A stretch of DNA of 64,000 nt from Panopea generosa (Eukaryota > Mollusca > Bivalvia > Adapedonta > Hiatellidae). The first letter of the stretch is position 1. Each line of letters starts with the position of its first letter. A program made the position numbers and the translations under genes. Under the pieces are notes generated by a model that saw nothing but the letters and a program-made list of their open reading frames with translations, did no database searches and was not told the DNA's origin. The stretch is from the NCBI GenBank assembly GCA_029582155.1, contig CM055909.1, positions 46,072,218-46,136,217 on the forward strand, written 5' to 3'. This document shows, piece by piece, positions 45,801 to 64,000 of this stretch.

Positions 45801-48800
45801 CAGGAGGAATGCCAATGACGTCACAAGGACCGAGAGAAGGTCTCGTCACACCGTGTATAGTAGTATAGTAGATACCGCCCCAGGGTGAGTCCTGAAACCA
45901 AAACCTATTCGATATAAACCCAACCCGCATTAACCTTTCTTCATATACTTTCTCCATGTTCTAATATTGCATTCCTTTTCAGCATGTTTGATTTTTATAA
46001 CTGTATTGTCCTCAACTTATTATTTCAAATAGTTACGTTCACTTTCTCCTCTTCCCCTTGTTTTATGTGTCGTTAACGTCAACATATACTTGAAATTGTA
46101 GTTTTATACATTCTATTGTTAGGCGTTTAAACAGCATGTGTTTATGGTATTCTTCCCTAAACATACAAGTTAGTAACAAGGAACGTTGCCATAGGCTTTG
46201 ACATTATGAACTCATAGGTCATTGTCCTTCTTCAAACGTTGTACATTCCCAAAGAATATCAAAGGAGTTGCCTTCTCAAGAGATTATATTTTAAAGAGAT
46301 TATATTCTCAACAAATTATATTCTAAAGGATTTATATTCTAAAGAGATAATATGCTCAAGAAATTATATTCAAAAGAGATTCTATTCTAAAGAGATTATA
46401 TTCTAAAGACATTATATTCTCAAGAGATTATATTCTAAAGGATTTATATTCTAAAGAAATAATATGCTAAAGAAATTATATTCTAAAGAGATTATATTCT
46501 AAAGAGATTATATTCTAAAAGATTATATTCTAAAGAGATTATATTCTCAAGAGATTATATTCTTAAGAGATAATATTCGCAAGAAAGAGTTCAGGAGATT
46601 ATACTCTAAAGAGATTATATTCTAAAGAGATTATATTCTTAAGTGATTATATTCTCAAAATATCAACAAGTAATGTCCACAGCTATTCACATCACTGCCA
46701 AAGCAATGTTAAGTAAAATATGTGATAAAAAAACAATTGAGCCACAACATTAAGATGCCCTACACGTCATTTTTTCATTCTTTCAAAGAAACTTTACATT
46801 TCGTTGTTGCATGCATTAAAAGAAGAAACACAGATCTTTTAAAGAAACAGCTTTTAAAGAGTGTGTTCGCTAACATCACGATATAACAGCACTGCTTGAT
46901 ACAATAACATGCAAGTGCCTATATATCTCAATATCATACGGATATAGCGCCCATTTACAGACACATCTCAATACAATACTTATGTTCATAATTAAAGATC
47001 ACAGGCATATTTATATCAATTACTATTATAATGATGAAAATTCTTATTAATAAATTACAGATATCTCAATAAAATAGTGATGCAAAAGACTATTTATAGA
47101 ATAGAGAAAGAAATAGCAATATCATAATGATGAAAATCTGAATATTATATAAAGAAACAATGAACCAATAGTCAAAAAAGTTATATTAAATGCTAAGTGG
47201 TGTTTCCGAACATTTCAAATACATAATATATTTACAATATATATATATATATATTTGCATGTCGTTTTTTTTATATACATTTATATACTGATAAATATAT
47301 ATATTTCACATAAGCATGTACTTTTCTTCTTTTTTTACATGCAGTTAAAAAGGACAATGAGTTGTGTTTGTCCAGCAGGATTTACATCACTGTGTATGTC
47401 ACTGCATGTCTTTATTTTGCATCTACTTACTGTTTTATCTACGCACATAAATAATATATCTTTACATTTTTAAGTTAGTGTTTTTATAGTTGTCATATAT
47501 ACATGTAACACATCTCTTAATGGTTTGGTTGGATGAATCAGTCTGAGTAAAAACTGGTTATGTCATATATGACCTGAATGGTGTTAAACATTATAAGTGT
47601 TTAATTAATTATTTCTACAAAAATATGATATATACAATAACTGAGATATCTAACAGTAATGTTTTTTGAGATATAAATATATATATATATATGGACTTTT
47701 ATATTATACACCATACATAGTAAATGAGCATCATTTCGTTCATATTTGGTTTTTATCATTCCGTGTGTTTTCTGCATGAAGCCATCTTCAAAATCAAAAA
47801 GGCTCGCAATGTATGGCGTAAGGACTGGTCAAAATATCGAACCACAGAGTGATAAAAACTGATTTAACAATCTTTGAAAGTGTCGTTCAACACTAACAGA
47901 ATAACAAAGTGGTCATTTTCTTCTGATTTCATGACTTCTATGCTCAAACTTCTAAAAATATATGCTAGAATTACTTTTGAAACATATTTTGACACACTGT
48001 CTAGAGAACTTTTCATTTCAATATGAATAGTTTATGTCATGCATTTAAAATCATCCATAAATAATGCGCAGAACAATCGACTTATATCATATAAAGTTCA
48101 TAATCAGATTTAAATGTTAGTTACAGTTAAAATGTCATTTATTTTATTATTACAAAATGACATTTTATATAATTAATTGTCTACCTTTTAAAAATATGTC
48201 AAGTAACTAAAATTGACACAAACCATCGACGGAACGTGTATCTAGCAATGATGCAATATCAACAGCCACCCAAATAAGAAACTGAAACAAATACTTGCAA
48301 CAGGTAATGACGTACATTCACAACTTCCACTCAAACAATTAAAATATATGATATTATATATTTTCTTTGACGCAGAACTATCATTAAGCATATCATATCT
48401 GTGTATATTAGAATATTGCGACCTTCAGTAGACACATTTGTATCTTAGTGATTTTTTCTATATTTCAGATGACAATAGTTCGTATTCAAATGCTTATTAA
48501 AATATATACATCCCATGTTATAGTAATTCATCAATGTATTGTTTCTAATATTGGTTTATTAAACTGCAGGATGAGGCAAGTGACGTCAACGAATGAAGAA
48601 CAAGCCATAATCTCCACTGAATCATTAACACCAACATATACCACCTCATATCATAACATGGACGCGACAGCATTTCCTCAGAGCCATGATCCATACCGAC
48701 CAGTCGATGCGGAAAGACCACCTTCCCCAAACGCAATATTTTCTGGAGTAAGATCGATGTCAATATCTTCCATCAAATCGTCGGTTAAAGTGTGCTTCAA

Positions 48801-51800
48801 TGATGAAAAACTTGAACGGAAGGATAAAAGTGAACGTTTGCAAGCATTACAACCCGATAAAGATGTGTCAAAAGATAAAGATGTAAGTATTTGTTTGGAA
48901 AATGATAATGAGTTTGTAACCACAGAGCAGTATAAAGACAAAAATACCGAAATAAGATTTGATAAACAGAATAGTAATATTGAAATACACAAGCAAGAGA
49001 CGATAGAAAGAGACCAGCAACTGTATAAAATAAAACAAATAGTTGTTGTATCAGTTGATACTAAGAAAACTACTGATAATGTTACGGACGATTGTAAAAT
49101 ATCTCAAATAATGGACGACAAACCTGAAGAAGAACTGAGCATGTTAACTGAATCATCAGTTCAACAGGATTCTGAAGAAGGCAGCATTACTGACAGAACG
49201 TTGACGCCGACGCTAGATGTTGTGCTGGATGATCAAATTACGCGAGAGAGTAAAGTAGAAATATCTGGTAAGATTGTGAAGAAACAGAAATATACACATG
49301 AACAAGCGGAGAAACAAACAATCACTATTGGGGATGTAAGCATAACAGCTGAAAGGCATGGACACCTTCAGCCAATGAAAAAGAAAATATCCCCAAGGGA
49401 GAATAAAGATAAAAGGTCACCAAGAGTAACTAAAGACAAAAGGTCTTCTAGAGTGCATAAGGAAAAGTACTCATCAAACGAAAGCATTGGAAAGATGTCA
49501 CCTAGGGAAGCAATTGATAAGAGAACACAAAACAAAAAGAAAATAGAAAAAGATAAAACAATATACGTCGTTGGAACTAAAGATACAAAAGGTCGGTGGG
49601 CCAAGCAATCAGATATCGTTAAACAACCGACTGGAGTCGATTTGTCAGAAAATGTGAGACTTAGTGAAGTTAGCTTACGAGAAGCAGAAAACAAACCGAC
49701 AGATAATATCAAAGAAAATGACACAACAATTGTAGATGCTGTTGATATGAAGAATGATAATACAATTAATGCTAACGATGACAACAAAGAAAGATACACG
49801 AAAGAAACACATACAGATTTTGAGGACAATGACAATGAAAAGCAAGATGACTATGAAGATGATTTTGAAGAAGATGAACCTAACGAACCTACAAAAACGG
49901 ATACAGACAATGCCTCAAATCACAAATTAGACAATGAAGAAGATCAATCTAATTATATTAAGGACTCGTTAGAAGATCCGATGGATAAACCTACGAAAAC
50001 AATTGAAAATAGAGATAATCGAGAAAGTCGTATTTCAGTAGTAGAAGACGTCGAACGTCATACTGGTTTTCAAGACCATAACAAGGAAACAGAGGTGAAC
50101 AGAGTGGATGTAAAACAAGATTATGAAACCAATCTCAGAGCAAATCCCTCTTTTAAAAGTCACATTATACAAGTACATCCTAAGGAAATCGATACAGAGC
50201 TTTCCACAGAAGATCCCAATTTCAATTTGGAAAATAGCTGTCAATCAGCCTGTGATAAAACCAACAAATCAGTCAGCAAACAAAGAGTCTGGAATAGGCA
50301 CTCTTGTTATATCAAACTCAACGATCAACACTCTTGTCATTTCGAGTGAAAGTAAGTTTGGCAAGGAAACGTTGGATTCACTAACTAGAGAATCAAGCAC
50401 AATAAAGAAAGTTGACACAGAAGGAGCAGACATTAACTCAAACAATAAAAATAAATCAGAAGACATATCAAGTATGAAAGGGTTACTAGAAGATCAAAGT
50501 TCTGAAATTCCGTTACAGTCAGATGAAGGTAACAAAGAGAATATAAAAGAAAAAAGTACATCTCATTTGACTGCAAAAGAAGATAGCGAAGTTGAAGAAG
50601 GACATGTCCAAACAAAAGAAGATTATCACATCTCTGAAAACTTTGAAATGAAAGCTGTACTTACAGAATACACTGACTTTTCACTACAAGGGTCAATTTC
50701 CTGCCATACTCAAACTATTAATTCAACTCAGACACAAACTATCAATTCCATTCAAACACAAACTATCTCAAACGTACAAACCCAAACCCAAGCAGAAATT
50801 GAAACACAAACAGATGTAACAGTTGAATCACAAACGGACTATGTTTTAAACGAAGAATCAGTTGACAATGACGAAAAACATAGACATGTAAAATACAATG
50901 ATTTTGGAACATCACCAATACCACAAGAAGAGATAATAACGATAAATGATGACCAGGTTATTGTTTTCAAAAATACAGAAGAAACAAAGGCAGCAGAAGA
51001 TCAGGTTCAGAAATTCGTCAAAGATCCACAATCTGACACAGAAGTAATCGAATCCGTGCAGGACTCGAATATACATCAAGAGATTACTTGAATTGGGGAT
51101 AACTAAACCAGAATCAAAAATTGCTGAAGCGGAAGATTTTAAATCAGACTTAGATATTGCAACATCGAAAGAAAGAAATGAGACAGAATCTGCAACAAAA
51201 GAAACTTTAGATGTAGAAATATTAGAATCAGGAAGCGCCCAAAACAGACCAAGACATTATTCAGACCACTGATGTGGATGCCACTCAAGCAAAATATGCT
51301 ACACATGATATTGAAACTGAATCAAAAATTGATGAAGAGGCAGATGCCAAATTAGACTTGAATATTACAACATCGAAAGAAGAAAATGAGACAGAACTGA
51401 CAACGAAAGAATCTTTAGTAGATGTATCAGAATCAGAGACGTTTAAACCAGAACAAGACATTACCAAAACTGAACCAGAAATTGTACGATCAGAAAATGA
51501 CACTAGTGATGTAAATACTATTGAAGAAAAATCAGGTAACTACTGATATGAGGGATGATGTAATAGTTGCTGAAACAGAAGATGCAAATAAAGAAACGAT
51601 AATTGTAGCAGAACTTAAATATAAGATGGCCACACCGGACGAAAACAATACTGAGGCCGTATCGGAAACTGTCAAATTTGAGAATGACTCTACTGATGTG
51701 GATCCTATTGAAGTGAAACAGGCTACACCTGATATACGAACTGAATCAAAAATTGATGATGGGGCAGATGTAAAATCAGACTTAGATAGTGCAACATCGA

Positions 51801-54800
51801 AACAAGACTATGAGACAGCATCAGCAATGAACAAAATTTTAAATGTAGAAGTATTAGAATCCGAGACATCCAAACCAGAACAAGATATTACCAAAATCGA
51901 ACAAGACATTGTACAATCTGAAAATGACACTAATGATGTAAATGACATCGAAGAAAATCAGGTTACTGCTGATATAGGGAATGATCTATCAATTGCTGAA
52001 ACAGAAGATACAAAATCAAACTTACATATTGCTGAAGTCAACGAAGTGAATGCGGCAGAAGCTTCAAATAATAAAACATTCGTTGTATCAGAATTTAAAT
52101 CTGAGACGGCCACACTGGACAAAGAAAATGTCGATGCCTTATTAGACACTGTCAAATTCGAGAATGACACTACTGGCGTGGATCAAATTCAAGCAAAACA
52201 GGCTACTCCTGATATACAAACTGAATCAAAAATTGATGAAGGGGCAGATGACAATTCATACTTAGATATTGCAACACCGACAGCAGATAATGAGACAGAA
52301 TCAACAACGAAAGAAAATTTAGATGTAGAAGTATTAGAATCAGAGACGTCCAAAGCAGAACAAGAAAAACAGGCTATAACTGATATTGGGAATGATTCAA
52401 TAATTGCTGAAACAGAAGATGCAAATAACGAAACGTTTATTGAAGCAGAATTTAAATCTAAGATGGCTACACCGGACGAAAACCATACCGAGGCCGTATC
52501 GGAAACTGTCAAATTCGTGAATGACACTACTGATGTGGATCAAATTCAAGCGAAACAGGCTACTCCTGATATACAAACTGACTCAAAAATTGATGAAGGA
52601 GCAGATGACAAATTAGACTTAGATATTGCAACACCGACAGCAGAAAATGAGGACTGAATCGACAACAAAAGAAATTTTAAATGTAGAAGTATTAGAATCA
52701 GAGACGTCCAAAGCAGAACAAGAAATACAGGTTATTACTGATATTGGGAATGATTCAATAACTGCTGAAAATGAAGATGCAAATAACGAAACGTTAATTG
52801 TAGCAGAAGTTAATTTTAAGATGGCCACACCGGACGAAAACAATGCCGAGACCATATTACAGGCTACTCCTGATATAGAGAATAAATCCAAAATTGCTGA
52901 AGGGGAATATGTCAGATCAGACTTAGATGATGCAACACTGAAAGAAGAAATTGAGACAGAATTGGCAACGACAGAAACTTTAGATGAAGAAATTTTAGAA
53001 TCTGAGCAGTCCAAACAAGAAGATGACACTACTAAGACCGAACAAGATATTGATCAATTAGAAAACGAAATTGCACAATATGAAAATGACACTAATGATG
53101 TAAACGACATCGAAGAAAATCAGGTTACTGTTGACATAGGGTATGATTTATCAAATGCTCAAACAGAAGATACAAAATCAAACTTACATATTGCTGAAGT
53201 CAACGAAGTTAATGAGACAGAAGCTGCAAATAATGAAACATTCGTTGTAGCAGAATTCAAATCTGAGACGGCCACACTGAACAAAGAAAATGTCGAAACC
53301 TTATTAGAAACAGTCAAAATTGAGAATAACACTACTGATGGGGATCTTCAAGGGAAACAGGCTACTCCTGATATACAAACTGGATCAAAAATTGATGAAG
53401 GGGCAGATGTCAAATCAGACTTGGATATTGCAACACCGACAAACGAAATTGAGGTAGAATCGGCAACGAAAGAAAATTTAGATGTAGAAGTATTAGAATC
53501 AGAGACGTCCAAAGCAGAACAAGAAAAACAGGCTATAACTGATATTAGGAATGATTCAATAATTGCTGAAACAGAAGATGCAAATAACGAAACGTTTATT
53601 GAAGCAGAATTTAAATCTAAGATGGCCACACCGGACGAAATCGATACCGAGGCCGTACCGACAACTGCCAAATTCGACAATGACTCTACTGGTGTGGATC
53701 CTTTTGAAGCCAAACAGGCTACACCTGATATACAAACTATATCGAAAATTGATGATGAGGCAGCTGTCAAATCAGACTTAGATATTGCAACACTGAATCA
53801 AGACAATGAGACAGAATCGGCAACGAAAGAAACTTTAGATGCAGAAGTATTAGAATCAGAGACATCCAAACCAGTACAAGATATTATCAAAATCGAACAA
53901 GACAATGTACAATCTGAAAATTACACGAATGATGTTAATGACATCGAAGAAAATCAGATTACTGCTGACATAGGGAATGATCTATCAATTGCTGTAACAG
54001 AAGATACAAAATCAAACTTACATATTGCTGAAGTCAACAAAGTTAATGAGACAGAAGCTGTAAATAATGAAACATTCGTTGTAGTAGAATTCAAATCTGA
54101 GACGGCCACACTGGACAAAGAAAATGTCGAGGCCTTATTAGAAACTGTCAAATTCGAGAATGACACTACTAATGTGGATCAAATTCAAGAGAAACAGGCT
54201 ACTCCTGATATACAAACTGAATCAAAAATTGATGAAGGGGCAGATGACAAATCAGACTTGGATAATGCAACACCAACAGCAGAAAATGAGACAGAATCAA
54301 CAACAAAAGAAATGTTAGATGTAAAAGTATTAGAATCAGAGACGTCTAAAGCAGAACAAGAAAAACAGGTTATTACTGATATTGGGAATGATTCAATAAT
54401 TGCTGAAACAGAAGATGCAAATAACGAAACGTTAATTGTAGCAGAATGTAAATCTAAGATGGCTACACTTGACGAAAACAATATCGAGGCCGTATCGGAA
54501 ACTGTCAAATTCGATAATGACTTTACTGATGTGGATCCTATTGAAGCGAAACAGGATACACGTGATAAACAAACTGAATCAAAAATTGATGATGAGGCAG
54601 ATGTCAAATCAGATTTAAATATTGCAACACCCAAACAAGCCAATGAGACAGAATCGGCAACGAAAGAAACTTTAGATGAAGAAGATGAATCAGAAATATT
54701 CAAACCAGAACAAGATATTACCAAAATCGAACAAGAAATTGCACACTCTGAAAATGACACTAAAGATGTAAATGACATCGAAGAAAAACATGTTTCTACT

Positions 54801-57800
54801 GATATAGATAATGATTCATCAATTGCTGAAACAGAAGATGCAAAGTCAGACTTACATATTGCTGAAGAGAGCAAAGATAACGAGGCTAAATATGCAAATA
54901 ATGAAACTTTGATTGTAACAGAAATAAAATCTGAGACGGCCAAACAGGACGAAGAAAATACCGAGGTCGTATTAGAAACTGTCAAATTTGAGAATGACAC
55001 TACTGATGTGGATCCTATTGAAGGGAAACAGGGTACTCCTGATACACAAACTGAATCAAAAGTTGATGTAAGGGCGGATATCAAATCAGACTTAAATATT
55101 GCAATACCGACAGAAGAAAATAAGACAGAATCGCTAAAGAAAGAAACATTAGATGTAAAAGTATTACAACCAAAGATGTTCACAAAAGACCAAGACATTA
55201 CCAAAGCCGAACCAAAAAGTGTAAGATCAGAAAATGACACTAGTAATGCAACTGACATCGAAGAAAATCAGATAACTACTTACATAGGGAATGATTCATC
55301 ATTCGCTCAAACAGAAGATACAAAATCAGACTTACATATTGCTGCAGACAACGAAGCTAATGAAGCAGAAGCTGCAAATAATGAAACGTTAATTATTTTA
55401 GAACTTGAATCTGAGACAGTCACACCGGACGAAGACAAAGTCGAGGCTATTTCAAGCACTGTCAAATCCGAAAATGATACACTTGATACGGATGCCATTA
55501 AAGCCAAACAGATATCTCCTGATATACATGTTGAATCAACAATTGCAGAACGTACGGATATCAAATCAGACTTAGATATTGCAATAACAAAAGAAGAACA
55601 TGAGAATGAACCGGTCACGGAAGAAACCGTAGGTGTCGTAGTATCAGATTCAGATACGTTCAAACCAGCAGAAGACATAACCAAGACTGAACCAGAAACT
55701 TTACGATCAGAATATGACACTAGTGATGTAAATGATATTGAAGAGAAACAGGTTACTACTGAAATTGGGAATGATACAATAATTGCTGAAACAGAAGATG
55801 CAGAATCAGATATTGCTGCAGACAAAAGAGTAAATGAAACAGAGGATGCAAATAACGAACCGTTGCTTGTAGCAGAACTTAAACCCGAGACGGCCACACC
55901 AGACGAAGACAATGCCGAGGCCGTATCAGAAACTGTCAAATTCGAAAATGACACTACTGATTTGGATCCTAATGAAGCGGAACAGGCTACTCCTGAAATG
56001 CAAACTGAATCAAAAATTGATGAAGTGGCAGATGACAAATCAAACTTAGATATTGCAACACCGACAGCAGAAAATGAGACAGAATCGGCAATGAAAGAAA
56101 CTTTAGATGTAGAAGTAATAGAATCAGAGACGTCCAAACTTGAACAAGACATTACTAAAACCGAACAAGATATTGTACGATCAGACAATGACACCAGTGG
56201 TGTAAATGACATTGAAGAAAAACAAGTTACTAATGATGTAGAGAAAGATTCATCAATTGCTAAAACAGAAGATGCAATGTCAGACTTACACATTGCTGAA
56301 GACAGCGAAGATAATGAGGCTAAAGCTGCAAATAATGAAACTTTGATTGTAGCAAAATTAAAATCTGAGACGGCCACACCGGACGAAGAAAAAAATGCCG
56401 AGGTCGTATTAGAAACTGTCAAATTCGAGAATGACACTACTGATGTGGATCCTATTGAAGCGAAACAGGCTACTCCTGATACACAAACTGAATCAAAAAT
56501 TGATGAAAGAGCAGATATCAAATCAGACTTAAATATTGCAATACCAACAGAAGAAAATGAGACAGAATCGCTAAAGAAAGAAACATTAGATGTAAAAGTA
56601 TTACAACCAGAGATGTTCACAAAAGACCAAGACATTACCAAAGCCGAACCAGAAAGTGTACGATCAGAAAATGACACTAGTAATGCAAATGACATCGAAG
56701 AAAATCAGATAACTACTTACATAGGGAATGATTCATCATTCGCTCAAAAAGAAGATACAAAATCAGACTTACATATTCGTTGCAGACAACGAAGCAAATG
56801 AAGCAGAAGCTGCAAATAATGAAACATCAATTATAGAACTTGAATCTGAGACAGTCACACCGGTCGAAGACAAAGTCGAGGCTATTTCAAGCACTGTCAA
56901 ATACGAAAATGACACACTTGATATGGATGCCATTAAAGCCAAACAGATATCTCCTGATATACATGTTGAATCAACAATTGCAGAAGGGACGGATGTCAAA
57001 TCAGACTTAGATATTGCAACAACAAAAGAAGAACATGAGAATGAACCAGTCGTGGAAAAAACTGTAGGTGTCGTAGTATCAGATTCAGATACTTTCAAAC
57101 CAGCAGAAGACATAACCAAGACTGAACCAGAAACTTTACGATCAGAATATAACACTAGTGATGTAAATGATATTGAAAAGAAACAGGTTACTACTGAAAT
57201 TGGGAATGATACAATAATTGCTGAAACAGAAGATGCAAAATCAGATATTGCTGCAGACAAAAGAGTAAATGAGACAGAGGATGCAAATAACGAACCGTTG
57301 CTTGTAGCAGAACTTAAACCCGAAACGGCCACACCAGACGAAGACAATGCCGAGGGCGTATCAGAAACTGTCAAATTGGAGAATGACACTACTGATTTGG
57401 ATCCTAATGAAGCGGAACAGGCTACTCCTGTAATGCAAACTGAATCAAAAATTGATGAAGGGGCAGATGACAAATCAAACTTAGATATTGCAACACCGAC
57501 AGCTGAAAATGAGACAGAATCGGCAATGAAAGAAACTTTAGATGTAGAAGTAATAGAATCAGAGATGTCCAAACTTGAACAAGACATTACTAAAACCGAA
57601 CAAGATATTTTACGATCAGACAATGACACCAGTGGTGTAAATGACATTGAAGAAAAACAGGTTACTACTGATGTAGAGAAAGATTCATCAATTGCTAAAA
57701 CAGAAGCTGCAATGTCAGACTTACACATTGCTGAAGACAGCGAAGATAATGAGGCAAAAGCTGCAAATAATAAAACTTTGATTGTAGCAAAATTAAAATC

Positions 57801-60800
57801 TGAGACGGCCACACCGGACGAAGAAAATGCCGAGGTCGTATTAGAAACTGTCAAATTCGAGAATGACACTACTGATGTGGATCCTATCGAAGCGAGACAG
57901 GCTACTCCGAATACACAAACTGAATCAAAAATCGACGAAAGGGCAGATATCAAATCAGACTTAAATATTGCAATACCGACAGAACAAAATGAGACAGAAT
58001 TGCTAATGAAACAAACATTAGAAGTATTAGAACCAGAGACGTCCACAAGAGACCAAGACCTTACCAAAGCAGAACCAGAAAGTGTACGATCAGAATATGA
58101 CACTAGTGATGTAAATTACATCGAAGAAAAACATATAACTACTGATATGGGAAATGATACAATAATTGCTGAAACAGAAGATGCAACATCAGACTTAGAT
58201 ATTGCTGCAGACAAAGAAGTAAATGAGACAGACGTTGCATGTAACGAAACTTTGATTGCACCAGAACTAAAATCTGAGACGGTCACACCGGACGAAAACA
58301 ATGCCGAAGCCGTTTTAAAAACTGTCTACTCCGAGAATGACACTAGTAATGAGGATGCCATTGAAGCAAAAAAGGGTATTCCTGATAAAGAAACTGAATC
58401 CAAAATTGCTGAAGGGACAGATGTAAGACCAGACTTATATATTGCAACATCGAAAGAAGAAAATGAAACAGAGATGGCAACGAAAAAAACTGTAGATGTC
58501 GAAGTATCAGAAGCAGTGACGTTTCAACCAGAACAAGACATTATTAAGACCGAATCAGAAATTGTACGATCAGAAAATGACACTAGTGATGTAAATGTTA
58601 TTGAAGAAAAACAGTGTAATACTGATATTGAGAATGATTCAATAATTGCTGAAACAGAATATGCAAAATCAGATATTGCTGCAGACAAAAATGGAAATGA
58701 GACAGAATATGCAAATAACGAAACGTTTATTGATGCAGAACTCAAATCTGAGATGGACACATCCAGACGAAGACAACACCGAGGCCGTATCAGAAACAGT
58801 CAATTTCGAGAATGACACTACTGATGTGGATGCCATTGAAGCCAAACAGGCTACTCCTGATATACAAACTAAATCAAAAAATGACGATGGGGCAGATGTT
58901 CAATTAGACTTAGATATTGCAACACCGAAAGAAGAAATTGAGACAGAATCTTTAACAAAGGACACTTTAGATGTTGAGGTATTAGAATCAGAGACGTCCT
59001 CACCAGAACAAGACATTACCATACCCGAACCAGAAAGTGTAAGATCAGAAAATGACACTAGTGATGTAAATGCTATTGAAGAAAAACGGTTTAATACTGA
59101 TATTGGGAATGATTTGATAACTGCTCAAACAATAGATGCAAAATCAGATATTGCTGCTGACAAAAAAGGAAATGAGACAGAATATGCAAATAACGAAACG
59201 TTAATTGATGCAGAACTCAAATCTGAGATGGCCACACCAGACGAAGACAACGCCGAAGGCCGTATCAGAAACAGTCAATTTCGAGAATGACACTACTGAT
59301 GTGGATGCCATTGAAGCCAAACAGGCTACTCCTGATATACAAACTAAATCAAAAAGTGACGATGAGGAAGATGTTCAATTAGACTTAGATATTGCAACAC
59401 CGACAGCAGAAAATGAGACAGAATCTTTAACAAAAGACACTTTAGATGTAGAGGTGTTAGTATCAGAGACGTCCTCACCAGAACAAGACATTACCATACC
59501 CGAACCAGAAAGTGTAAGATCAGAAAATGACACTAGTGATGTAAATGTTATTGAAGAAAAACAGTTTAATACTGATATTGGGAATGATTTGATAAATGTT
59601 AAAACAGAAGATGCAAAATCAGATATTGCTGCAGACAAAAAAGGAAATGAGACAGAATATGCAAATAACGAAACGTTGATTGATGCAGAACTTAAATCTG
59701 AGATGGCCACACCAGACGAAGACAACACCGAGGCCGTATCAGAAACAGTCAATTTCGAGAATGACACTACTGATGTGGATGACATTGAGGTCAAACAGGT
59801 AACTCTTGATATACAAACTCAATCAAAAAATGACGATAGAGTAGATGTTCAATTAGACTTGGATATTGCAACACTGAAAGAAGGAAATGAGTCAGAATCG
59901 TCAATAAAATACACTTTAGATGTAAAGTTATTAGAATCAGAGGCGTACCCACCAGAACAAGACATTACAAAACCCGAACCAGAAAGAGTACGATCAGAAA
60001 ATGACACTAAGTGTTGTAAATAAAATCGGAGAGAAACAGCTTACTACTGACATAGGGAATGACTTAATAATTGCTGAAACAGAAGAGGCAAGACCAGACT
60101 TAAATATTACTGCAGACAAAGAAGTAAATGAGACAGAATCTGAGGTCGTGTTAGAAACTGTCTACTCCGACAATGACACTACTAATGAGGATGCCAATGA
60201 AGCGAAACAGGCTACTCCTGGTATACAAAATGAAACAAAAATAGATGAAAGGGCAGATGTCAAATCAGACTTAGATAATGCAACACCAAAAGAAGAAAAT
60301 GAGACAGAATCGGCAACTAAAGAAAATTTAGATGCAGAAGTATTAGAATCAGAGTCGTCCAAACCAGAAAAAGACGATGTAGACAAAAGTACTGAAGTTA
60401 GAATAGCTTCACAAGATGCCGACGAATGTACAAATGCTTTAATTACCCCAAAACCTGATGAAGAACGAAGTCCTATGCAGACAGGTCAGAATATTCTTTA
60501 TGGGCCGGCTTGTGAGCCTGCTGAACCAATTCCACCACCATTATCATCGTTTTTTAATGATGAAGAAATCGTTTCAAATACAAGTAGGAAAGATGATGTA
60601 AATGTGACCATACAAAATGATGCAATGGATAGAGAAGTTGAATGTAATGATGATGTATTTGATAGTAACTCTTATACTGACACTTTCACAACTGTCACTG
60701 ATACAAATGAGGATGTCTACCTAAGTTTCGGATGATACACTGACAACAATTTCGGAGGTAGACGAGGATAATAGTAATCTCAGTGTGTTTGGCAATGATA

Positions 60801-63800
60801 GTTTTAAGACTAAAGAAATATTGGAGGAGTTGAAAGAAAGTGAGGCCCTTCTAACAGTAAAGAACGAAAATGCTACCAAATTCCAAACAATAGATAAAGA
60901 AGGTAATACAATCGAAATTGAAATTGACACATCAATGCCTGATAAGGATATACACAATAATAAAGAGAGTAGCAATAGAGAAATAGAGGTGAAAGTTAAA
61001 GTACGAATTGCTGATAACGGATACATAAAAGATCTTTCAGAGGAAGATAAAGTCAAAACAAAAACAGAATCAGACATATGTGATATGAGTATTGCCGACC
61101 CAGTAGATTTAAAGACTGGTTCTAAAACATTACAAAATGAAACAAATCAAGTAAATGGACTTGATAACACTAGTAATGTAAATGACATTGAAGTGAAACA
61201 GGTAACTACTGATATAGGAAATGAGGCAACATTTGCTGAAGCAGAATATGACGAATCAGATTTAGTAATTATTACAGACAAAGAAATAAATGAGAGAGAT
61301 CCTGCAAAAAACGAAACTTTAATTCTAGAAGAATTAAAATCTGAGTCGGCCACACCTGAAGAAGAAATAGCCAAAGCCATATCAGAAACTGCCAAATCCG
61401 AAAATGACCTTACTGAAGTAAAAGTCAGTGAGGCGAAACTGACTACAGATGTATTAGAAACTAAATCAAATACTAAAGAAGAAGAATATGTCAAATCAAC
61501 ACTCCAAAACGACAATAAGTCGGAATCAGCAACGAAAGAAACTTTAGATTTGAATGCATTAGAATCTGAGACTCCCAAACCAGAAGATGATATTGCCAAG
61601 ACGGAACAAGAAACTTTAAAATCAAAAAACGACAGAAGTGATGTAAATGACATTGAAATAAAGCAAGTTATAACTGCTACAGGAAATGATTCCACTATTG
61701 CTGAAACAGAAGATGCAAAATCAGATTTAGATCTTGCTGCAGACACAGAAGTAAATAATACAGAATCTGCAAATAACGAAAGTTTAGTTGTAGCAGAATT
61801 AAAATCTGAGACGACCACAACATACGAAGACAATGCCGAGGCCGTATTAGAAACTATCAAATCCGAAAACGACACTACTAAAATGGATGGCATTGAAGAG
61901 AAAAATGCTACTACTGATATCGAGATTGAATCAAATATTACTGAAAGGGCGTTTGTCAATTCAGATATAGATGACGCAACGCCGAAAGAAGAAAATGAGA
62001 CAGAATCGCCAACAAATGAAACTTTTGGTGTAGAAGTTTTAGAATCTGAGCAACCCAAACCGAAAGATGCCATTACCAAGACCGAACAAGATATTGTTCA
62101 ATTGGAAATTGATAATAATAATGAAAATGACATTGTTGAAATTAAACAGGTTACAAGTGATACCGGAAAATATTCAACAATTGCTGAAACAGAATATGCA
62201 AAATCAGATTTAGATATTGCTGCAGACAAAGAAATAAATGGCAAAGAATCTGCAAATAACGAAATTTTAGTTGTTGCAGAATTAAAAGCTGAGATGACCA
62301 CAACGGAAGAGGACAATGCAGAGGCCTTATTAGAAACTGTCAAATCCAAGAACGACAATTCTAAGGTGCAAGGCATTGAAGCGAAACAGGCAACTCCTGA
62401 TATCGAGAGTGAATCAAAAATTGCTGAAGGGGTGGATGTCAAATCAGACTTATATGATGCAACACCGGAAGACGAAAATAAGACAGAATCGCCAACGAAA
62501 GAAACTTTAGATGTAGAAGTATTAGAATCTGAGAAGCCCAAATCAGAAGATGACATTACCAAGACCGAACAAGAAATTGTAAAATCAGAAAACGACACTA
62601 GTGATGTAAATGACATTGACGTAAAACAAGTTACAACTGATGCCGGAAACGATTCAACAATTGCTGGAACAGAAGATGCAAAATCAAATTTACAGATTGC
62701 TACAGAGAAAGAAATAAACGACAAAGAACCTACATATAACGAAAATTTAGTTGTTGCTGAATTAAAAGCTGAAACAACCAGACCGGACGAAGACAACGCC
62801 GAGGTCGAATTAGAAACTGTCAATTCCGAGCAAGACACTACTAATATTGATGGAAGTGAATCCAATCAGTCCATTCCTGATATCGAGAATGAATCAAAAA
62901 TTGCTGATGGGGTGAATTTCAGGTTAGACGAAGATGATGCAACACAGAAAGAAGAAAATGAGACAGAATCGGTAACGAATGAAACTTTAGATGTAGAAGT
63001 ATTAGAATCTGAGAAGTTCAAACCAGAAGAAGACATTACCAAGACCGAACAAGTAATTGTAAAATCGGAAAACGATACAACTGATGAAAATAACATTGAA
63101 GTGAAAGAAGTTACAAATAATACAGGGAAAGATTCAACAACTGCTGAAACAGAAGATGCAAAATCTGGTCTAGATCTTGGTGCAGACAAAGAAATAAATG
63201 ACAAAGAATCTGCAACTGACGAAACTTTAGTTGTAACAGAATTAAAAGCTGAGACGACCACACCGGACGAAGACAATGGCGAGGCTAAATTAGATGCTGT
63301 CAAATCCGAGAATGAAATTGCTAATGTGGATGGCATTGAAGCAAAACAGGCTACTTCTGATATCGAGAGTGAATTAAGTATTACTGAAGGGGAGGATGCC
63401 ATATCAGACTTAGTTGATGCAACACCGAAAGAGGAAAATGAGACAGAATCGGCAACGAAAGAAACTTTAGATGTAGAAGTTTTAAAATCTGATAAGCCCA
63501 AACAAGAAGATGACATTAGTAAGTCAGAACAAGAAATTGTTCAATCAGAAAATGATAATAATGATGTAAATGACATCGAATTTAAACAGGTTACAACTGA
63601 TACAGGAAATGATTCAACAATTGCTGAAACAGAAGATGCAAAATCAGATTTAGATCTTGCAGCAGACAAAGAAATAAACGACAAAGATTCTGCAAATATC
63701 GAAACTTTACTTGTTACTGAATTAAAAGATGAGACGACCACACCGGACGAAGACAATGACGAGGCCGTATTAGAAACTGTAAAATCCGAGCAAGTCACTA

Positions 63801-64000
63801 CTAATTTGGATGGAAGTGAATCCAATCAGGCACTTCCTGATATCGAGAGTGAATCAAAAATTGCTGAAAGGGTGGATGTCAAATCAGACGTAGATGATGC
63901 AACACCTAAACCAGAAGATGAAGTTACTATGACCGAACAAGAAATTGTAAAATCAGAAAATGTCACTAGTGCTGTAAATGACATTGAAGTAAAACAGGTT
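22508..64000 (+). CDS. Large unrecognised multi-exon gene (whole span, 3' end outside window)
   Basis: Ten exons: 22508-22563, 29255-29330, 30970-31080, 31615-31766, 38241-38374, 39418-39539, 41286-41433, 42402-42457, 45757-45884 and 48570 to beyond the window. The first nine total 983 nt. With the first base of exon 10 this makes 328 full codons, and every junction joins in phase with GT/AG sites, which strongly supports one gene. The product starts MAVSKKDIKDISELVRKK with no signal peptide or membrane segment. It is basic and Ser/Arg-rich for ~330 residues, then charged and low-complexity, then carries an LC8-type TQT cluster, then over 4,000 residues of acidic repeats. I do not recognise the family. 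The build (basic head, long acidic repeat tail, one giant exon) recalls large cytoskeletal scaffolds, but that is only analogy. Reading through exon 10 needs ten +1 frame changes. Confidence 0.75.
22727..22993 (+). mobile_element. tRNA-derived SINE, family B (copy 2) with target-site duplication
   Basis: A 5'-truncated copy starting inside the tRNA-like head (box B GAGTTCGAATCCCC), ending in an (ATCA)n tail. It is flanked by an 11-bp perfect direct repeat CTACCGAAGAC at 22,716-22,726 and 22,994-23,004, the mark of target-primed retroposition. It lies in intron 1. Confidence 0.9.
23191..23425 (+). mobile_element. tRNA-derived SINE, family A (copy 3)
   Basis: A diverged copy in intron 1. The tRNA-like head is degraded (CCGTGAATGACTAGCCTTTG), but the body 'tgccagttactagaggaagg', 'ttctcagattcattttt' and 'accagtaaaaa' matches the other copies. 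Confidence 0.75.
23426..24899 (+). other. Intron 1, no recognised content
   Basis: AT-rich intronic sequence. A 61-codon frame at 23,691-23,876 is Phe/Tyr-rich AT-frame noise. Confidence 0.45.
24900..25141 (+). mobile_element. tRNA-derived SINE, family B (copy 3, full head)
   Basis: The most complete tRNA-like head in the window: acceptor-like TCGGGCC pairs with CGCCCGA, box A is TTAGCTCTGTCGGTTA, a TCTGA/TTCAG anticodon-type stem has the loop CTATCAA, and box B is GAGTTCGAATCCCC. The family-B body follows immediately, so it is a SINE rather than a free tRNA gene. Confidence 0.85.
25344..25466 (+). CDS. Possible alternative exon between exons 1 and 2 (weak)
   Basis: After tandem acceptors six bases apart (ATCAG|TAACAG|AG), a frame in phase with exon 1 reads AYHSLILDTCFKDVLLSDIN and so on. 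To stay in phase with exon 2 it would have to use the weak donor TT|GTAATT near 25,467; the better-looking GTATGT donor at 25,460 breaks the frame. Exon 1 joins exon 2 perfectly without it, so it is probably spurious or a minor form. Confidence 0.2.
26100..26258 (-). mobile_element. tRNA-derived SINE-like repeat, family D (copy 1)
   Basis: The minus strand has a tRNA-like head ('gatcgcgtggtcatgtgatagag', box B GGTTCGATCC) followed by 'aagacacttttt' and 'gcatatgcttagtatcggt'. It is shared with 26,783 and 34,350. Confidence 0.7.
26259..26782 (+). other. Intron 1, no recognised content
   Basis: AT-rich with a short AT-palindromic tract near 26,655. Confidence 0.4.
26783..26943 (-). mobile_element. 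tRNA-derived SINE-like repeat, family D (copy 2)
   Basis: Carries GGGTTCGATCC (box B) on the minus strand, a degraded box A, and the family-D body ('tgagcaagacatttttt', 'gcataagctt'). The 66-codon plus-strand frame here is the repeat. Confidence 0.7.
26944..27795 (+). other. Intron 1, no recognised content
   Basis: No gene or repeat that I can support. Confidence 0.4.
27796..27900 (-). repeat. tRNA-like SINE remnant
   Basis: The minus strand contains GGTTCGAACCC (a perfect box B) preceded by a box-A-like segment about 45 bp upstream. No family body is recognised. Confidence 0.45.
27901..28861 (+). other. Intron 1, no recognised content
   Basis: Holds a 108-codon plus-strand frame (28,082-28,408) with no recognisable domain, coding bias or splice link to the surrounding gene. 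Confidence 0.4.
28862..29085 (+). mobile_element. SINE-like repeat, family E (copy 2)
   Basis: Aligns with the reverse complement of 8,052-8,245 and ends GACGCTAAACACCAAAC. It lies near the end of intron 1. Confidence 0.65.
29255..29330 (+). CDS. Large gene, exon 2
   Basis: Acceptor TTTCAG at 29,254, donor GTAAGT at 29,331. Only one frame is open, and it needs two bases from the previous exon, exactly what exon 1 supplies (CT+C). It encodes residues 19-44, including ELYMNVERRETRFDPKGRF and TTTPKM. Confidence 0.75.
29700..29905 (+). repeat. Dispersed repeat S (copy 1)
   Basis: Shares 'gggagctt.aacctg.tta', 'tccaa..t.gctctta' and 'cgagaca' in the same order with 37,880-38,085. Both copies lie in introns of the large gene. 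Confidence 0.5.
29906..30969 (+). other. Intron 2, no recognised content
   Basis: AT-rich; a 62-codon frame at 30,394-30,582 is unsupported. Confidence 0.4.
30970..31080 (+). CDS. Large gene, exon 3
   Basis: Acceptor CGTTTCAG, donor AAG|GTACAT. It is 111 nt and phase 0 at both ends. It encodes residues 45-81, starting HKYDFLYKVLDSTVLESQ and then the basic HRRSRHTKTESS. The RRSRHT motif recurs in exon 9. Confidence 0.78.
31081..31614 (+). other. Intron 3, no recognised content
   Basis: AT-rich. The 65-codon frame at 31,347-31,544 is noise. Confidence 0.45.
31615..31766 (+). CDS. Large gene, exon 4
   Basis: Acceptor CTACAG, donor AA|GTAAGT. It encodes residues 82-131 and part of 132. The sequence is strongly basic and Ser/Arg-rich (SPDRSKSSRKSSERAKSS) and ends in a possible nuclear localisation signal, EKKRKKDDK. 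The 107-codon frame over this region is an out-of-frame shadow. Confidence 0.8.
31767..32716 (+). other. Intron 4, no recognised content
   Basis: Short frames only. Confidence 0.4.
32717..32931 (+). repeat. Dispersed repeat T (copy 1)
   Basis: Aligns with 33,221-33,417: 'aaatgagac.ttt', 'tatagaac.t.cataa', 'gcccatgaggtga' versus 'gtccacgaggtga'. Two diverged direct copies lie 500 bp apart in intron 4. Confidence 0.55.
33221..33417 (+). repeat. Dispersed repeat T (copy 2)
   Basis: Partner of the copy at 32,717. The order of shared blocks is the same, with many substitutions. Confidence 0.55.
33418..34349 (+). other. Intron 4, no recognised content
   Basis: AT-rich, nothing supportable. Confidence 0.4.
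34350..34517 (-). mobile_element. tRNA-derived SINE-like repeat, family D (copy 3)
   Basis: Body 'gaagtcatcctggatagaac', 'actaagcatatgcagaaaag' and a tRNA-like head on the minus strand ('gcgtggtccagttataaag'), as in the 26-kb copies. Lies just left of the 145-bp array. Confidence 0.7.
34611..35826. repeat. 145-bp satellite-like tandem array
   Basis: About 8.4 copies of a 145-bp unit containing ACCATGACTGTGTGGCCGCA, TTGCACAAACAAGTCATTA and CAATCCTCGGAACTCATTTT. Variants GAACCATG and GAATCATG alternate in units 2 to 8, giving a 290-bp higher-order period. A cluster of overlapping 63-70-codon minus-strand frames comes only from the repeat, since 145 is not a multiple of 3. Lies in intron 4. Confidence 0.95.
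35827..36431 (+). other. Intron 4, no recognised content
   Basis: AT-rich; a 65-codon minus frame is unsupported. Confidence 0.4.
36432..36585. mobile_element. Small TIR element (pogo/Tigger-like MITE)
   Basis: Left end TACAATAGAACTTCGA and right end GTGAAGTTTTACTGTA are inverted repeats (12 of 16 match), bounded by TA as expected of Tc1/pogo-type target sites. The 154-bp interior contains the 'ctcgaaccctc' and 'attcgagcc' blocks typical of such MITEs. Confidence 0.55.
36586..37771 (+). other. Intron 4, no recognised content
   Basis: A 60-codon minus-strand frame (37,166-37,348) is not supported. Confidence 0.4.
37772..37814. repeat. (AC)n microsatellite
   Basis: About 21 AC dinucleotides without interruption. 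Confidence 0.95.
37880..38085 (+). repeat. Dispersed repeat S (copy 2)
   Basis: Partner of 29,700-29,905; shared blocks include 'ggggagcttgaacctggtta' and 'gctcttacc...atcgtcatatgataagacgagaca'. Confidence 0.5.
38241..38374 (+). CDS. Large gene, exon 5
   Basis: Acceptor TATTCTAG, donor G|GTAAGT. It encodes residues 132-176 and one base of 177: SKSSSQTHDEEEKRVVRSYP, then RSFKTEDHDTSHTTKSTESI. The phases match exons 4 and 6. Confidence 0.8.
38375..39097 (+). other. Intron 5, no recognised content
   Basis: AT-rich, no supportable feature. Confidence 0.4.
39098..39275 (-). mobile_element. tRNA-derived SINE, family B (copy 4, 3' fragment)
   Basis: Diverged body only ('gatggcataaaaatgacact' on the minus strand, 'ccaggaatcctgg', 'ttgatcagaagcgagaaac'). 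The tRNA head is lost. Confidence 0.55.
39418..39539 (+). CDS. Large gene, exon 6
   Basis: Acceptor TTGAAG, donor TTT|GTAAGT. It encodes residues 177-217, ending RRVVLDREYDRLTTYANDIF. The open frame continues into the intron past the donor, but exon 7 joins in phase. Confidence 0.78.
39700..39770 (+). repeat. Dispersed repeat R (fragment)
   Basis: Contains 'gaccttatttatatagaac' and 'attcaactgtgtagtgaggc', as in the full copies. Confidence 0.5.
39771..40539 (+). other. Intron 6, no recognised content
   Basis: AT-rich; a 62-codon frame at 40,212 is noise. Confidence 0.4.
40540..40965 (+). repeat. Dispersed repeat R (copy 4)
   Basis: Contains the TGCAGCAGATGAGAAAGCAA core with 'aagctggcatag', 'caataagaca', 'gatgcatgtat', 'gtcaacgcactctctttat', 'ggccaacctacc' and a 3' 'tatatagaacaaaaaaaacc' segment. 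Short frames here are repeat. Confidence 0.7.
41286..41433 (+). CDS. Large gene, exon 7
   Basis: Acceptor TTTCACAG, donor G|GTGTGT. It encodes residues 218-266: NDIPVDEVQIIHRYRPSRSN, then YQGFSRHVGSILRTKNFVQF. This is the least low-complexity, most globular-looking piece of the N-terminal region. No family was recognised. Confidence 0.8.
41434..42232 (+). other. Intron 7 with a microsatellite
   Basis: Contains the (CT)n run and a 106-codon frame (41,753-42,073) with no splice context or recognisable domain. Confidence 0.4.
41594..41635. repeat. (CT)n microsatellite
   Basis: About 20 uninterrupted CT dinucleotides. Confidence 0.95.
42233..42290 (+). mobile_element. tRNA-derived SINE, family A (5' fragment)
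   Basis: Head only: GAGGTCCTCCGCGGCTAAGT and GGTCTAAGGC. It stops before the body. Confidence 0.6.
42402..42457 (+). CDS. Large gene, exon 8
   Basis: A short exon with acceptor CTATTTCAG and donor AAG|GTAAAT. It encodes residues 267-285: GLSHSQSTDKGSTDSLSKK. The phases match both neighbours. Confidence 0.72.
42458..43280 (+). other. Intron 8 with a microsatellite
   Basis: Holds a (GTT/GCT)n run at 42,758-42,820; nothing else supportable. Confidence 0.45.
42758..42820. repeat. (GTT/GCT)n microsatellite
   Basis: GTT and GCT triplets, with a pure GCT core. Confidence 0.9.
43281..43807 (+). mobile_element. MITE family M (copy 3, best preserved ends)
   Basis: 527 bp bounded by TTAAAGGGAATTTATCAGG (43,281-43,299) and CCTGATAAACTCCCTTTAA (43,789-43,807), an 18 of 19 inverted match. 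The outermost TTAA could be a TTAA target duplication as in piggyBac-type elements, or part of the inverted repeat itself. The interior aligns with the copies at 1.8 and 2.7 kb. The 75-codon frame inside is not a gene. Lies in intron 8. Confidence 0.85.
43808..44689 (+). other. Intron 8, no recognised content
   Basis: AT-rich, nothing supportable. Confidence 0.4.
44690..45075 (-). repeat. Dispersed repeat R (copy 5, inverted)
   Basis: The reverse complement matches the 40.5-kb copy: 'ggtctcactacacagttgaa', 'gttgaccagc', 'gggtgcaatgacaccctgag' and the TGCAG core. Confidence 0.65.
45236..45418 (-). mobile_element. tRNA-derived SINE, family C (copy 2)
   Basis: Close match to 21,780-21,962: box B GGGTTCGATACCC on the minus strand, then 'cactcagtactggttcacca', 'ctcgagagcggttcatat' and 'agctctgagctt'. 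The 63-codon minus-strand frame is the repeat. Confidence 0.82.
45757..45884 (+). CDS. Large gene, exon 9
   Basis: Acceptor CGTTTTGTAG, donor GG|GTGAGT. It encodes residues 286-327 and two bases of Gly328: KNKSPSRGVHINHVTRRNAN, then RTERRSRHTVYSSIVDTAPG. It shares the RRSRHT motif with exon 3. The donor leaves GG, completed by the first G of exon 10. The 92-codon minus-strand frame here is a shadow. Confidence 0.78.
46275..46658. repeat. 16-bp minisatellite (AGAGATTATATTCTAA)
   Basis: About 24 imperfect copies, with CTAAAG and CTCAAG variants. Lies in intron 9. Confidence 0.92.
46659..47534 (+). other. Intron 9, no recognised content
   Basis: Very AT-rich, with TA runs near 47,240. A 72-codon frame at 47,255 is unsupported. 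Confidence 0.4.
47535..47600 (+). mobile_element. SINE family A tail fragment
   Basis: 'aatcagtctgag...gttatgtcatatatgacctgaatggtgttaaacatt' resembles the 3' end of family A (compare 23,335-23,415). Weakly supported. Confidence 0.35.
47601..48569 (+). other. End of intron 9, no recognised content
   Basis: AT-rich. The frame of exon 10 happens to be open upstream of the acceptor from 48,448, but the codons there look like AT-rich intron. Confidence 0.45.
48570..64000 (+). CDS. Large gene, exon 10: giant repeat-coding exon (runs off the window)
   Basis: The acceptor AACTGCAG at 48,569 joins exon 9 as GG|G then ATG AGG, so the frame is fixed independently. The exon codes for at least ~5,100 residues in order: a unique charged region (48,570-51,100) with a Lys/Ser/Arg stretch (SPREN, SPRVTK and SSRVHK repeats), the acidic DDYEDDFEEDEPNEP patch and a TQT motif cluster; acidic repeat domain 1 (51,100-60,360); a unique island (60,361-61,150); acidic repeat domain 2 (61,151 onward). 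Frame use is 1 up to ~50,270, then moves +1 at ~50,270, ~51,085, ~51,231, ~51,532, ~52,650, ~56,778, ~58,762, ~59,256, ~60,010 and ~60,724. Between the changes coding quality is high. No signal peptide precedes it, so its many NDT/NET sequons are probably not glycosylated. The long minus-strand frames opposite it are shadows. Confidence 0.72.
48883..48888 (+). other. Possible internal splice donor in exon 10
   Basis: GAT|GTAAGT at a codon boundary (phase 0) is a perfect donor sequence inside the coding frame (KDVSKDKD|VSICL). If used, the transcript would skip the repeat region. No matching acceptor is visible in this window. Confidence 0.3.
50705..50843 (+). repeat. TQT motif cluster (probable LC8 docking array)
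   Basis: Around residues 1041-1085 the frame-2 reading gives CHTQTI, STQTQTI, SIQTQTI, NVQTQTQ, EIETQTD and VESQTDY: five TQT motifs and one SQT, spaced about 8-13 residues. The TQT anchor, often TQTD or TQTE, is the known recognition motif of dynein light chain LC8, and multivalent arrays occur in ASCIZ and other scaffolds. Binding is inferred from the motif alone. Confidence 0.6.
51100..60360 (+). repeat. Coding repeat domain 1: 160-residue acidic units
   Basis: Full units are ~475-480 nt and shorter ones ~300-360 nt. Two related ~80-residue halves alternate. Half A starts like KQATPDIQTESKIDEGADVK and half B like KQVTTDIGNDSIIAETEDAK; both continue with an ENETES/NETEAANNETL-like segment and end SENDTxDVNxIE. 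Half-A starts fall near 51,720, 52,200, 54,199, 55,034, 55,514, 55,989, 56,469, 56,949, 57,423, 57,900, 58,375, 58,852 and 59,329. Rich in Glu, Asp, Thr, Asn and Ser with no Trp or His clusters: almost certainly disordered. Confidence 0.85.
54770..58130 (+). repeat. ~1.43-kb higher-order repeat inside domain 1
   Basis: Three-unit blocks recur at an offset of about 1,435-1,438 nt. For example the ISPDIHVESTIAE unit occurs at 55,511 and 56,946, and the SSIAxTEDAxSDLHIAEDSE-type unit at ~54,810, ~56,245 and ~57,680. High identity implies recent duplication by unequal exchange. The +1 change at 56,778 lies at the equivalent place to 55,340, which has no extra base. Confidence 0.8.
60361..61150 (+). 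other. Unique coding island between the two repeat domains
   Basis: The repeat pattern stops and a non-repetitive, still acidic segment follows. It includes ITPKPDEERSPMQTGQNILY, PACEPAEPIPPPLSSFFNDE (the only proline-rich spot) and, after the +1 change near 60,724, DDTLTTISEVDEDNSN and KTKEILEELKESEALLTVKN, a likely helix. No family was recognised. Confidence 0.65.
61151..64000 (+). repeat. Coding repeat domain 2: 160-residue acidic units
   Basis: Open in a single frame to the window end. TTDTGNDSTIAETEDAKSDL-type starts at about 61,677, 62,157, 62,637, 63,117 and 63,597 give a period of exactly 480 nt. The same A/B half-unit plan as domain 1 is kept, but with its own consensus (AADKEINDKESANNETL, KPEDDITKTEQEIVKSEND), so the two domains expanded separately. 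Confidence 0.85.

What the first reader, a model, noticed from the sequence alone, without database searches (positions are those of the whole stretch)
50230..60735. Ten consecutive frame changes in one giant exon, all +1
The coding frame of exon 10 runs 1-2-3-1-2-3-1-2-3-1-2, always advancing by +1, at about 50,270, 51,085, 51,231, 51,532, 52,650, 56,778, 58,762, 59,256, 60,010 and 60,724. At seven of these the neighbouring repeat copies allow direct comparison, and each shows one extra base: GAGGACTGAA versus GAGACAGAA at 52,650, ATTCGTTGCA versus ATTGCTGCA at 56,778, GCCGAAGGCC versus GCCGAGGCC at 59,256. Most are followed within a few to ~60 bases by a stop in the old frame. If direction were random, ten alike would be expected about once in 500. 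Options: insertion-biased long-read assembly errors, ongoing decay, or programmed +1 frameshifting. Long frame-clean stretches (52.7-56.7 kb, 60.7-64 kb) mean that errors would have to be clustered.
Basis: partly seen in the sequence, partly recalled or inferred. Interest (0 to 1): 0.8.

Follow-up and report, generated by a model that had tools for sequence, protein, structure and literature searches.

The report
Giant exon with patchy assembly errors
A very large repeat-filled coding exon in a big genome, probably an animal's, seems to change reading frame ten times, but the pattern fits a short stretch of poorly called sequence with surplus single bases far better than an unusual way of reading genes.

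Summary
A codon-usage parse finds ten frame changes in the window's part of the exon, all +1, on a path with 0 stops in 5,113 codons. At seven sites the aligned repeat units show one extra base private to one copy; the other indels scored there are multiples of three.

The exon continues to a stop at window-scale 79,746, about 31 kb. One more +1 lies at 64,787; the following 4,986 codons, made of the same repeats, are one open frame. All eleven thus fall in 14.55 kb (P = 0.003).

Programmed shifting is not supported: no shared motif, old-frame stops at chance distance, no RNA structure. Decay is disfavoured: no stops, no deletions, and the insertions sit on young repeat copies, as errors would.

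Best reading: insertion-biased consensus errors in one patch about a long read in length, inside an intact giant gene. This is inferred: no reads were available, the platform is unknown, and three sites lie outside repeats.

The parts
48570..64000 (+). window part of one giant, apparently last coding exon (continues to a TAG at window-scale coordinate 79746 in loci L003 and L004; about 31 kb) encoding an acidic, Thr/Lys/Ser-rich repeat protein
   Evidence: 10,392 codons counted from 48559, four codons before the apparent exon start; acceptor-like CTGCAG just before 48570 seen; five pieces searched against Pfam, nothing above a curated cut-off
51104..63996 (+). 29 tandem units or part-units, most of them about 360-480 bases; 63 used over the whole exon
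   Evidence: nhmmer units; TRF
50236..60724 (+). stretch holding the ten +1 frame changes seen in the window; with the eleventh at 64787 (outside the window) the affected stretch is 14.55 kb
50236..50347 (+). frame change 1, position uncertain in this interval, outside the repeat units
51086..51091 (+). frame change 2, outside the repeat units
51228..51234 (+). frame change 3, one extra base private to this repeat copy
51531..51537 (+). frame change 4, one extra base private to this repeat copy
52649..52655 (+). frame change 5, one extra base private to this repeat copy
56775..56781 (+). frame change 6, one extra base private to this repeat copy
58759..58765 (+). frame change 7, one extra base private to this repeat copy
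59255..59260 (+). frame change 8, one extra base private to this repeat copy
60008..60014 (+). frame change 9, one extra base private to this repeat copy
60721..60735 (+). frame change 10, outside the repeat units

Best explanation
The gene is intact and under selection to keep its frame; the assembly is locally poor. A stretch of about 14.6 kb (50.2-64.8 kb), about one long read in length, carries surplus single bases at about 0.76 per kb from an insertion-biased sequencing error process that was not corrected there. Shown: frame steps all of one sign, with a single extra base private to one repeat copy wherever copies can be compared, confined to that stretch, and no decoding signal found. 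Inferred: that the bases are absent from the organism's DNA, and that the stretch rests on one or few raw reads or an uncorrected gap-fill.
For: All eleven shifts lie in 14.55 kb of a 31.1 kb exon (span P = 0.003). 31 repeat units start before 64.8 kb and hold 8 private +1 insertions; 32 start after it and hold none (Fisher P = 0.002). The last 4,986 codons are one open frame. The frame is under selection: 0 stops in 10,392 codons on the parsed path, although 737 differences in three overlapping self-alignments times 4.9% nonsense would give about 36 without selection. Age test: the 5 insertion-bearing units in the 24-unit tree have short terminal branches (mean 0.050; a mutation process expects 0.121, P = 0.002; a uniform error process P = 0.12; likelihood ratio 42, or 258 with internal branches). 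No motif, stop coupling or structure. Literature: PacBio RS II read errors were dominated by insertions (PMC6879543, passages read); short-read polishing leaves errors in repeats of bacterial genomes because reads align to error-free copies (PMC8812927, passages read); [quoted passage not shown] Elsewhere in this assembly long frames are mostly open: of 17 long-frame, low-scoring HSP70-profile matches 13 have open frames of at least 550 codons, one of the 13 with a stop inside the match.
Against: No reads could be inspected and the platform is unknown. Ten of ten insertions needs an insertion fraction of at least 0.74 (95%). [quoted passage not shown] In this very assembly one HSP70 copy on C7 is split over three frames by two steps of the -1 sign (from the match coordinates; pseudogene or error not resolved), so errors elsewhere need not be insertions. 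The extra bases are mostly not in homopolymers, unlike the commonest residual long-read errors (PMC8812927 abstract). Sites 1, 2 and 10 lie outside the repeat units, and the second half of the exon is just as repetitive but clean, so failed repeat polishing alone does not explain the sites. Substitutions are not enriched near the insertions (9 of 84 near, 49 of 534 far, seven sites, P = 0.39), so there is no error signature from that side.
Confidence: 0.85

Rival explanations
1. Stop-triggered +1 frameshifting: an internal stop makes the ribosome skip one base, so single-base insertions are tolerated at any place and accumulate while deletions do not, as described in Euplotes.
For: It predicts insertions only, at chance distances before a stop, which is what is seen. 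[quoted passage not shown]
Against: It predicts sites all along the exon, but the last 14.96 kb has none. It predicts older insertions inherited by several repeat copies; 7 of 7 in the window are private (weak alone: P = 0.08) and those in the tree sit on short branches. AAA precedes 2 of 10 old-frame stops and 9 of 10 are TGA, unlike the AAA_TAR pattern reported for Euplotes. The genome, 1.47 Gb in 39 contigs, is not one of nanochromosomes.
Confidence: 0.02
2. The insertions are real and the gene has begun to decay, or this individual carries a broken allele.
For: Single-base insertions are an ordinary mutation. Amino-acid constraint between repeat copies is weak (pN/pS about 0.79, pairs not independent).
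Against: No stops and no single-base deletions accompany the insertions. Neighbouring tandem arrays hold 27 single-base insertions and 25 deletions against their consensus (my recount without one 57-base array whose consensus length did not fit; 46 and 28 with it), which gives eleven of one sign P = 0.0007; part of that balance may be paired alignment gaps, so this is soft. The age test disfavours mutation.
Confidence: 0.08
3. The insertions are real but harmless because the transcript does not use this stretch in one frame (separate exons, isoforms or an early end).
For: No RNA evidence was available either way.
Against: The frame is kept across the 31 kb apart from the eleven steps (0 stops in 10,392 codons on the parsed path; other scored indels in threes), and at the seven sites with good paralogues the repeat DNA runs on across the site with one extra base, leaving no room for introns.
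Confidence: 0.04

Closest known systems
Uncorrected insertion errors in long-read assemblies (PMC6879543, PMC8812927, PMC8337076; passages read)
   Same: single-base insertions that break frames, left in place in part of an assembly
   Different: mostly outside homopolymers and all of one sign; reads not seen
Stop-codon +1 frameshifting in Euplotes (PMC10235951; passages read)
   Same: one-base insertions with an old-frame stop soon after
   Different: TGA dominates here, AAA context in 2 of 10, about half the exon has no sites, not a nanochromosome genome
Perkinsus mitochondrial frameshifts (PMC9550989; passages read)
   Same: many +1 shifts within one gene
   Different: Perkinsus sites share AGGY/TMGGY or CCCCT; no shared motif here
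Antizyme-type +1 frameshifting of animals (recalled)
   Same: +1 direction
   Different: one conserved site in antizyme; here eleven sites, private where copies can be compared, without unusual structure at the ten tested

Membership tests
Long-read consensus error patch | errors confined to a stretch, with clean neighbouring sequence of the same kind | tested here: met
   11 in 14.55 kb, then 0 in 14.96 kb of the same repeats
Long-read consensus error patch | extra bases absent from accurate reads | not testable with these tools
   no reads held
Long-read consensus error patch | positions independent of sequence age | tested here: met
   uniform model P = 0.12, mutation model P = 0.002; 5 sites in 24 of 29 units, two part-units with sites left out
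Long-read consensus error patch | errors mostly in homopolymers (usual for residual errors) | tested here: not met
   by eye on the alignments, at most one or two of seven sites touch a homopolymer; no formal count made
Euplotes-type stop-triggered frameshifting | shift at a stop codon, mostly AAA_TAR | tested here: not met
   AAA precedes 2 of 10 old-frame stops, 9 of 10 are TGA, distances equal chance
Euplotes-type stop-triggered frameshifting | sites not confined to one part of a long coding sequence | tested here: not met
   none in the last 4,986 codons
Perkinsus-type codon-specific frameshifting | a shared motif at the sites | tested here: not met
   information content over 19 columns 9.42, random 9.48, P = 0.51; site tetramers recur in frame 6-197 times unshifted
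Antizyme-type programmed frameshifting | downstream stimulatory RNA structure | tested here: not met
   z-scores -0.35 to 1.68 at ten sites, -1.75 to 0.82 at six controls; pseudoknots not modelled
Decaying gene | nonsense changes and deletions alongside insertions | tested here: not met
   0 stops on the parsed path, 0 single-base deletions

The most novel reading that the evidence does not exclude
A nuclear gene of a large, probably animal, genome in which ribosomes skip one base at internal stop codons, so that single-base insertions are tolerated and accumulate in one direction.
Probability: 0.02. Interest if true: 0.95.

Novelty: not a real feature. Interest (0 to 1): 0.13.

Why it matters
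If the shifts were real they would break the triplet rule in a nuclear gene outside the ciliates. As they stand they are a useful warning: a run of like-signed frame changes in one giant repeat exon can come from one poorly called stretch, and reading beyond the window's edge changed the picture.

Tried and rejected
Tested and not borne out: a shared slippery motif, stop-coupled shifting by distance, stimulatory RNA structure, substitutions clustered at the insertions (seven of ten sites used, P = 0.39), clustering inside the window (P = 0.45). First noncoding control (six arrays): those of 145, 60 and 17 bases, 3,271 bp, hold 0 indels (2.1 expected at the exon's rate, P = 0.12); those of 16, 13 and 20 bases do hold indel bases (insertions/deletions 0/5, 5/24, 3/0) and were left out of that sum because their units are short or divergent. 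A larger control (20 arrays of at least 80% match and at most 2% indels, 24,427 bp) found single-base indels both ways, so noncoding arrays cannot serve as an error-free yardstick. Pfam on exon pieces and on three + strand frames of 20.0-48.6 kb with stops read as X gave nothing above a curated cut-off; a PDB sequence search of one piece gave only E-values of 0.05 and 0.34. A repeat-derived pattern gave 0 matches in genome contigs and viral contigs, which hold prokaryotes and viruses. One search failed on BLAST parameters; one search stopped with an error after printing the counts cited. In one search the gap settings produced pairs of compensating gaps, so only the substitution ratio is used. 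On re-reading I lowered the best explanation from 0.87 to 0.85 and raised decay from 0.07 to 0.08, because of the two -1 steps in an HSP70 copy, the balanced indels of PMC8337076 and the nanopore error profile of PMC6879543.

Not obtained: a search of the own genome for a second copy or haplotig of this locus did not complete.

Full report
What was claimed.

Is it there? Yes. A dynamic-programming parse on codon usage, with +1 and -1 steps equally penalised, gives ten steps, all +1, and 0 stops in 5,113 codons on that path (the parse avoids stops, so this is partly by construction, but one search lists the same long open frames without it). The three remaining sites lie outside the units and rest on frame usage.

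What surrounds it. The window is part of a 1.474 Gb genome in 39 contigs; I take it for an animal's, from size and sparse coding, without a test. Reading the next 20 kb shows that the exon goes on to a TAG at window-scale coordinate 79,746. The whole exon is about 31 kb; 10,392 codons were counted from 48,559, four codons before the apparent exon start, with 0 stops on the parsed path, and are rich in E, D, T and K. One more +1 lies at 64,787. After it come 4,986 codons in one open frame, made of the same units. Thus 31 units starting before 64.8 kb hold 8 single-base insertions and 32 units after it hold none (Fisher P = 0.002). One gap of two columns at 66,415 lies at a unit's end where the frame is open, so I read it as an edge effect. 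All eleven shifts lie within 14.55 kb (span P = 0.003, longest gap P = 0.009). Inside the window alone the sites look evenly spread (P = 0.45).

Is the frame under selection? Three self-alignments of at least 85% identity, which overlap in part, hold 737 differences. With 4.9% of single substitutions making a stop, about 36 stops would be expected without selection; none is on the path. Amino-acid constraint is weak (pN/pS about 0.79 over 14 non-independent alignments), as might be expected of a disordered repeat protein, but the frame is kept.

Programmed shifting. No shared motif: information content at the sites equals that of random in-phase positions (P = 0.51), and the codon-plus-base context of each site recurs 6 to 197 times in frame without a shift. 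Old-frame stops are at chance distance (median 15 observed and simulated; mean 28 against 35) and 9 of 10 TGA is unremarkable (P = 0.18). RNA downstream of the ten sites is not unusually folded (pseudoknots not modelled). A general stop-triggered +1 shift, as in Euplotes (PMC10235951, passages read), would fit insertions only and chance distances, so alone cannot exclude it; the clean second half of the exon and the age test speak against it. Perkinsus mitochondrial sites share consensus sequences (PMC9550989, passages read), which are missing here.

Age test. Real insertions should collect on long branches of the repeat tree. Of 29 units, 24 were long enough for the tree; five carry insertions (two insertion-bearing part-units were left out). 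Their terminal branches are short: mean 0.050 against 0.121 expected for mutation (P = 0.002), while a uniform process gives P = 0.12; the likelihood ratio is 42 or, counting internal branches, 258. Seven of seven insertions are private, which is only weak evidence by itself (P = 0.08).

Direction of indels nearby. In 20 tandem arrays around the exon, chosen for at least 80% match and at most 2% indels (24,427 bp), single-base insertions and deletions both occur: 46 and 28 in all, or 27 and 25 by my recount without one 57-base array whose consensus length did not fit. Some may be paired alignment gaps. Mutation here does not look insertion-only, and noncoding arrays cannot serve as an error-free yardstick. 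An earlier, smaller control of three arrays had none in 3,271 bp where 2.1 would be expected at the exon's mean rate (P = 0.12); with the patch localised to 50.2-64.8 kb this no longer conflicts with the error reading.

Assembly quality elsewhere. A search with the HSP70 profile lists 73 matches. Of 17 long-frame, low-scoring matches (HSPA12-like, a name from recollection), 13 have open frames of at least 550 codons, one of them with a stop inside the match; at the patch rate about 27% of such frames would survive (whose printed label says at least 12 although the value is for 13 or more). Of seven strong HSP70 matches with open frames of at least 500 codons, five have no stop inside. One further copy on C7 is split over three frames, and its match coordinates give two steps of the -1 sign, the opposite of those in the exon; whether it is a pseudogene or badly called is open. 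Open frames are selected by the listing, so this is a rough guide.

Conclusion. The frame changes are in the assembly but most likely not in the organism. The best explanation is an insertion-biased error process in one stretch about as long as a single long read. PacBio RS II read errors were dominated by insertions, nanopore errors were not (PMC6879543, passages read); short-read polishing tends to leave errors in repeats (PMC8812927, bacterial genomes, passages read); in a Drosophila nanopore assembly the residual coding indels, 15 insertions and 17 deletions, lay where short reads mapped poorly (PMC8337076, passages read). Against this reading: the bases are mostly not in homopolymers, three sites are outside the repeat units, the equally repetitive second half is clean, and no reads were at hand. 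The exon of more than ten thousand codons is the more durable observation.

Noticed in passing
window 48570-64000 and L003, L004 to window-scale 79746: An exon of about 31 kb, more than ten thousand codons, coding for an acidic repeat protein; five pieces searched gave no Pfam family above cut-off.
   Followed up: partly
window-scale 64787 (L003 about 787): An eleventh +1 step just beyond the window, then 4,986 open codons.
   Followed up: yes
G000 C7:36030807-36032373: One HSP70 copy in a tandem cluster matches in three overlapping pieces in different frames, two steps of the -1 sign by the match coordinates, so it is broken or badly called.
   Followed up: no
G000 C16:46193912 (500 N) and C16:46246912 (7,500 N): Runs of N about 122 and 175 kb from the window's start; a run of 500 is often a scaffold gap (recalled), the longer one may be a gap or a withheld stretch.
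   Followed up: no
G000 C16, about 37 to 72 kb before the window's start: A long tandem region of 47/94/188-base units.
   Followed up: no
window 18345-19981 and 34610-35812: Tandem arrays of 60 and 145 bases, 94-95% alike with no indels; part of the first reads as a 299-codon open frame, as a period divisible by three allows.
   Followed up: partly
window 45343-45416 (-): A tRNA match just over the Rfam gathering score (30.8 against 29 bits), perhaps part of a short interspersed element; ARAGORN found no tRNA.
   Followed up: no
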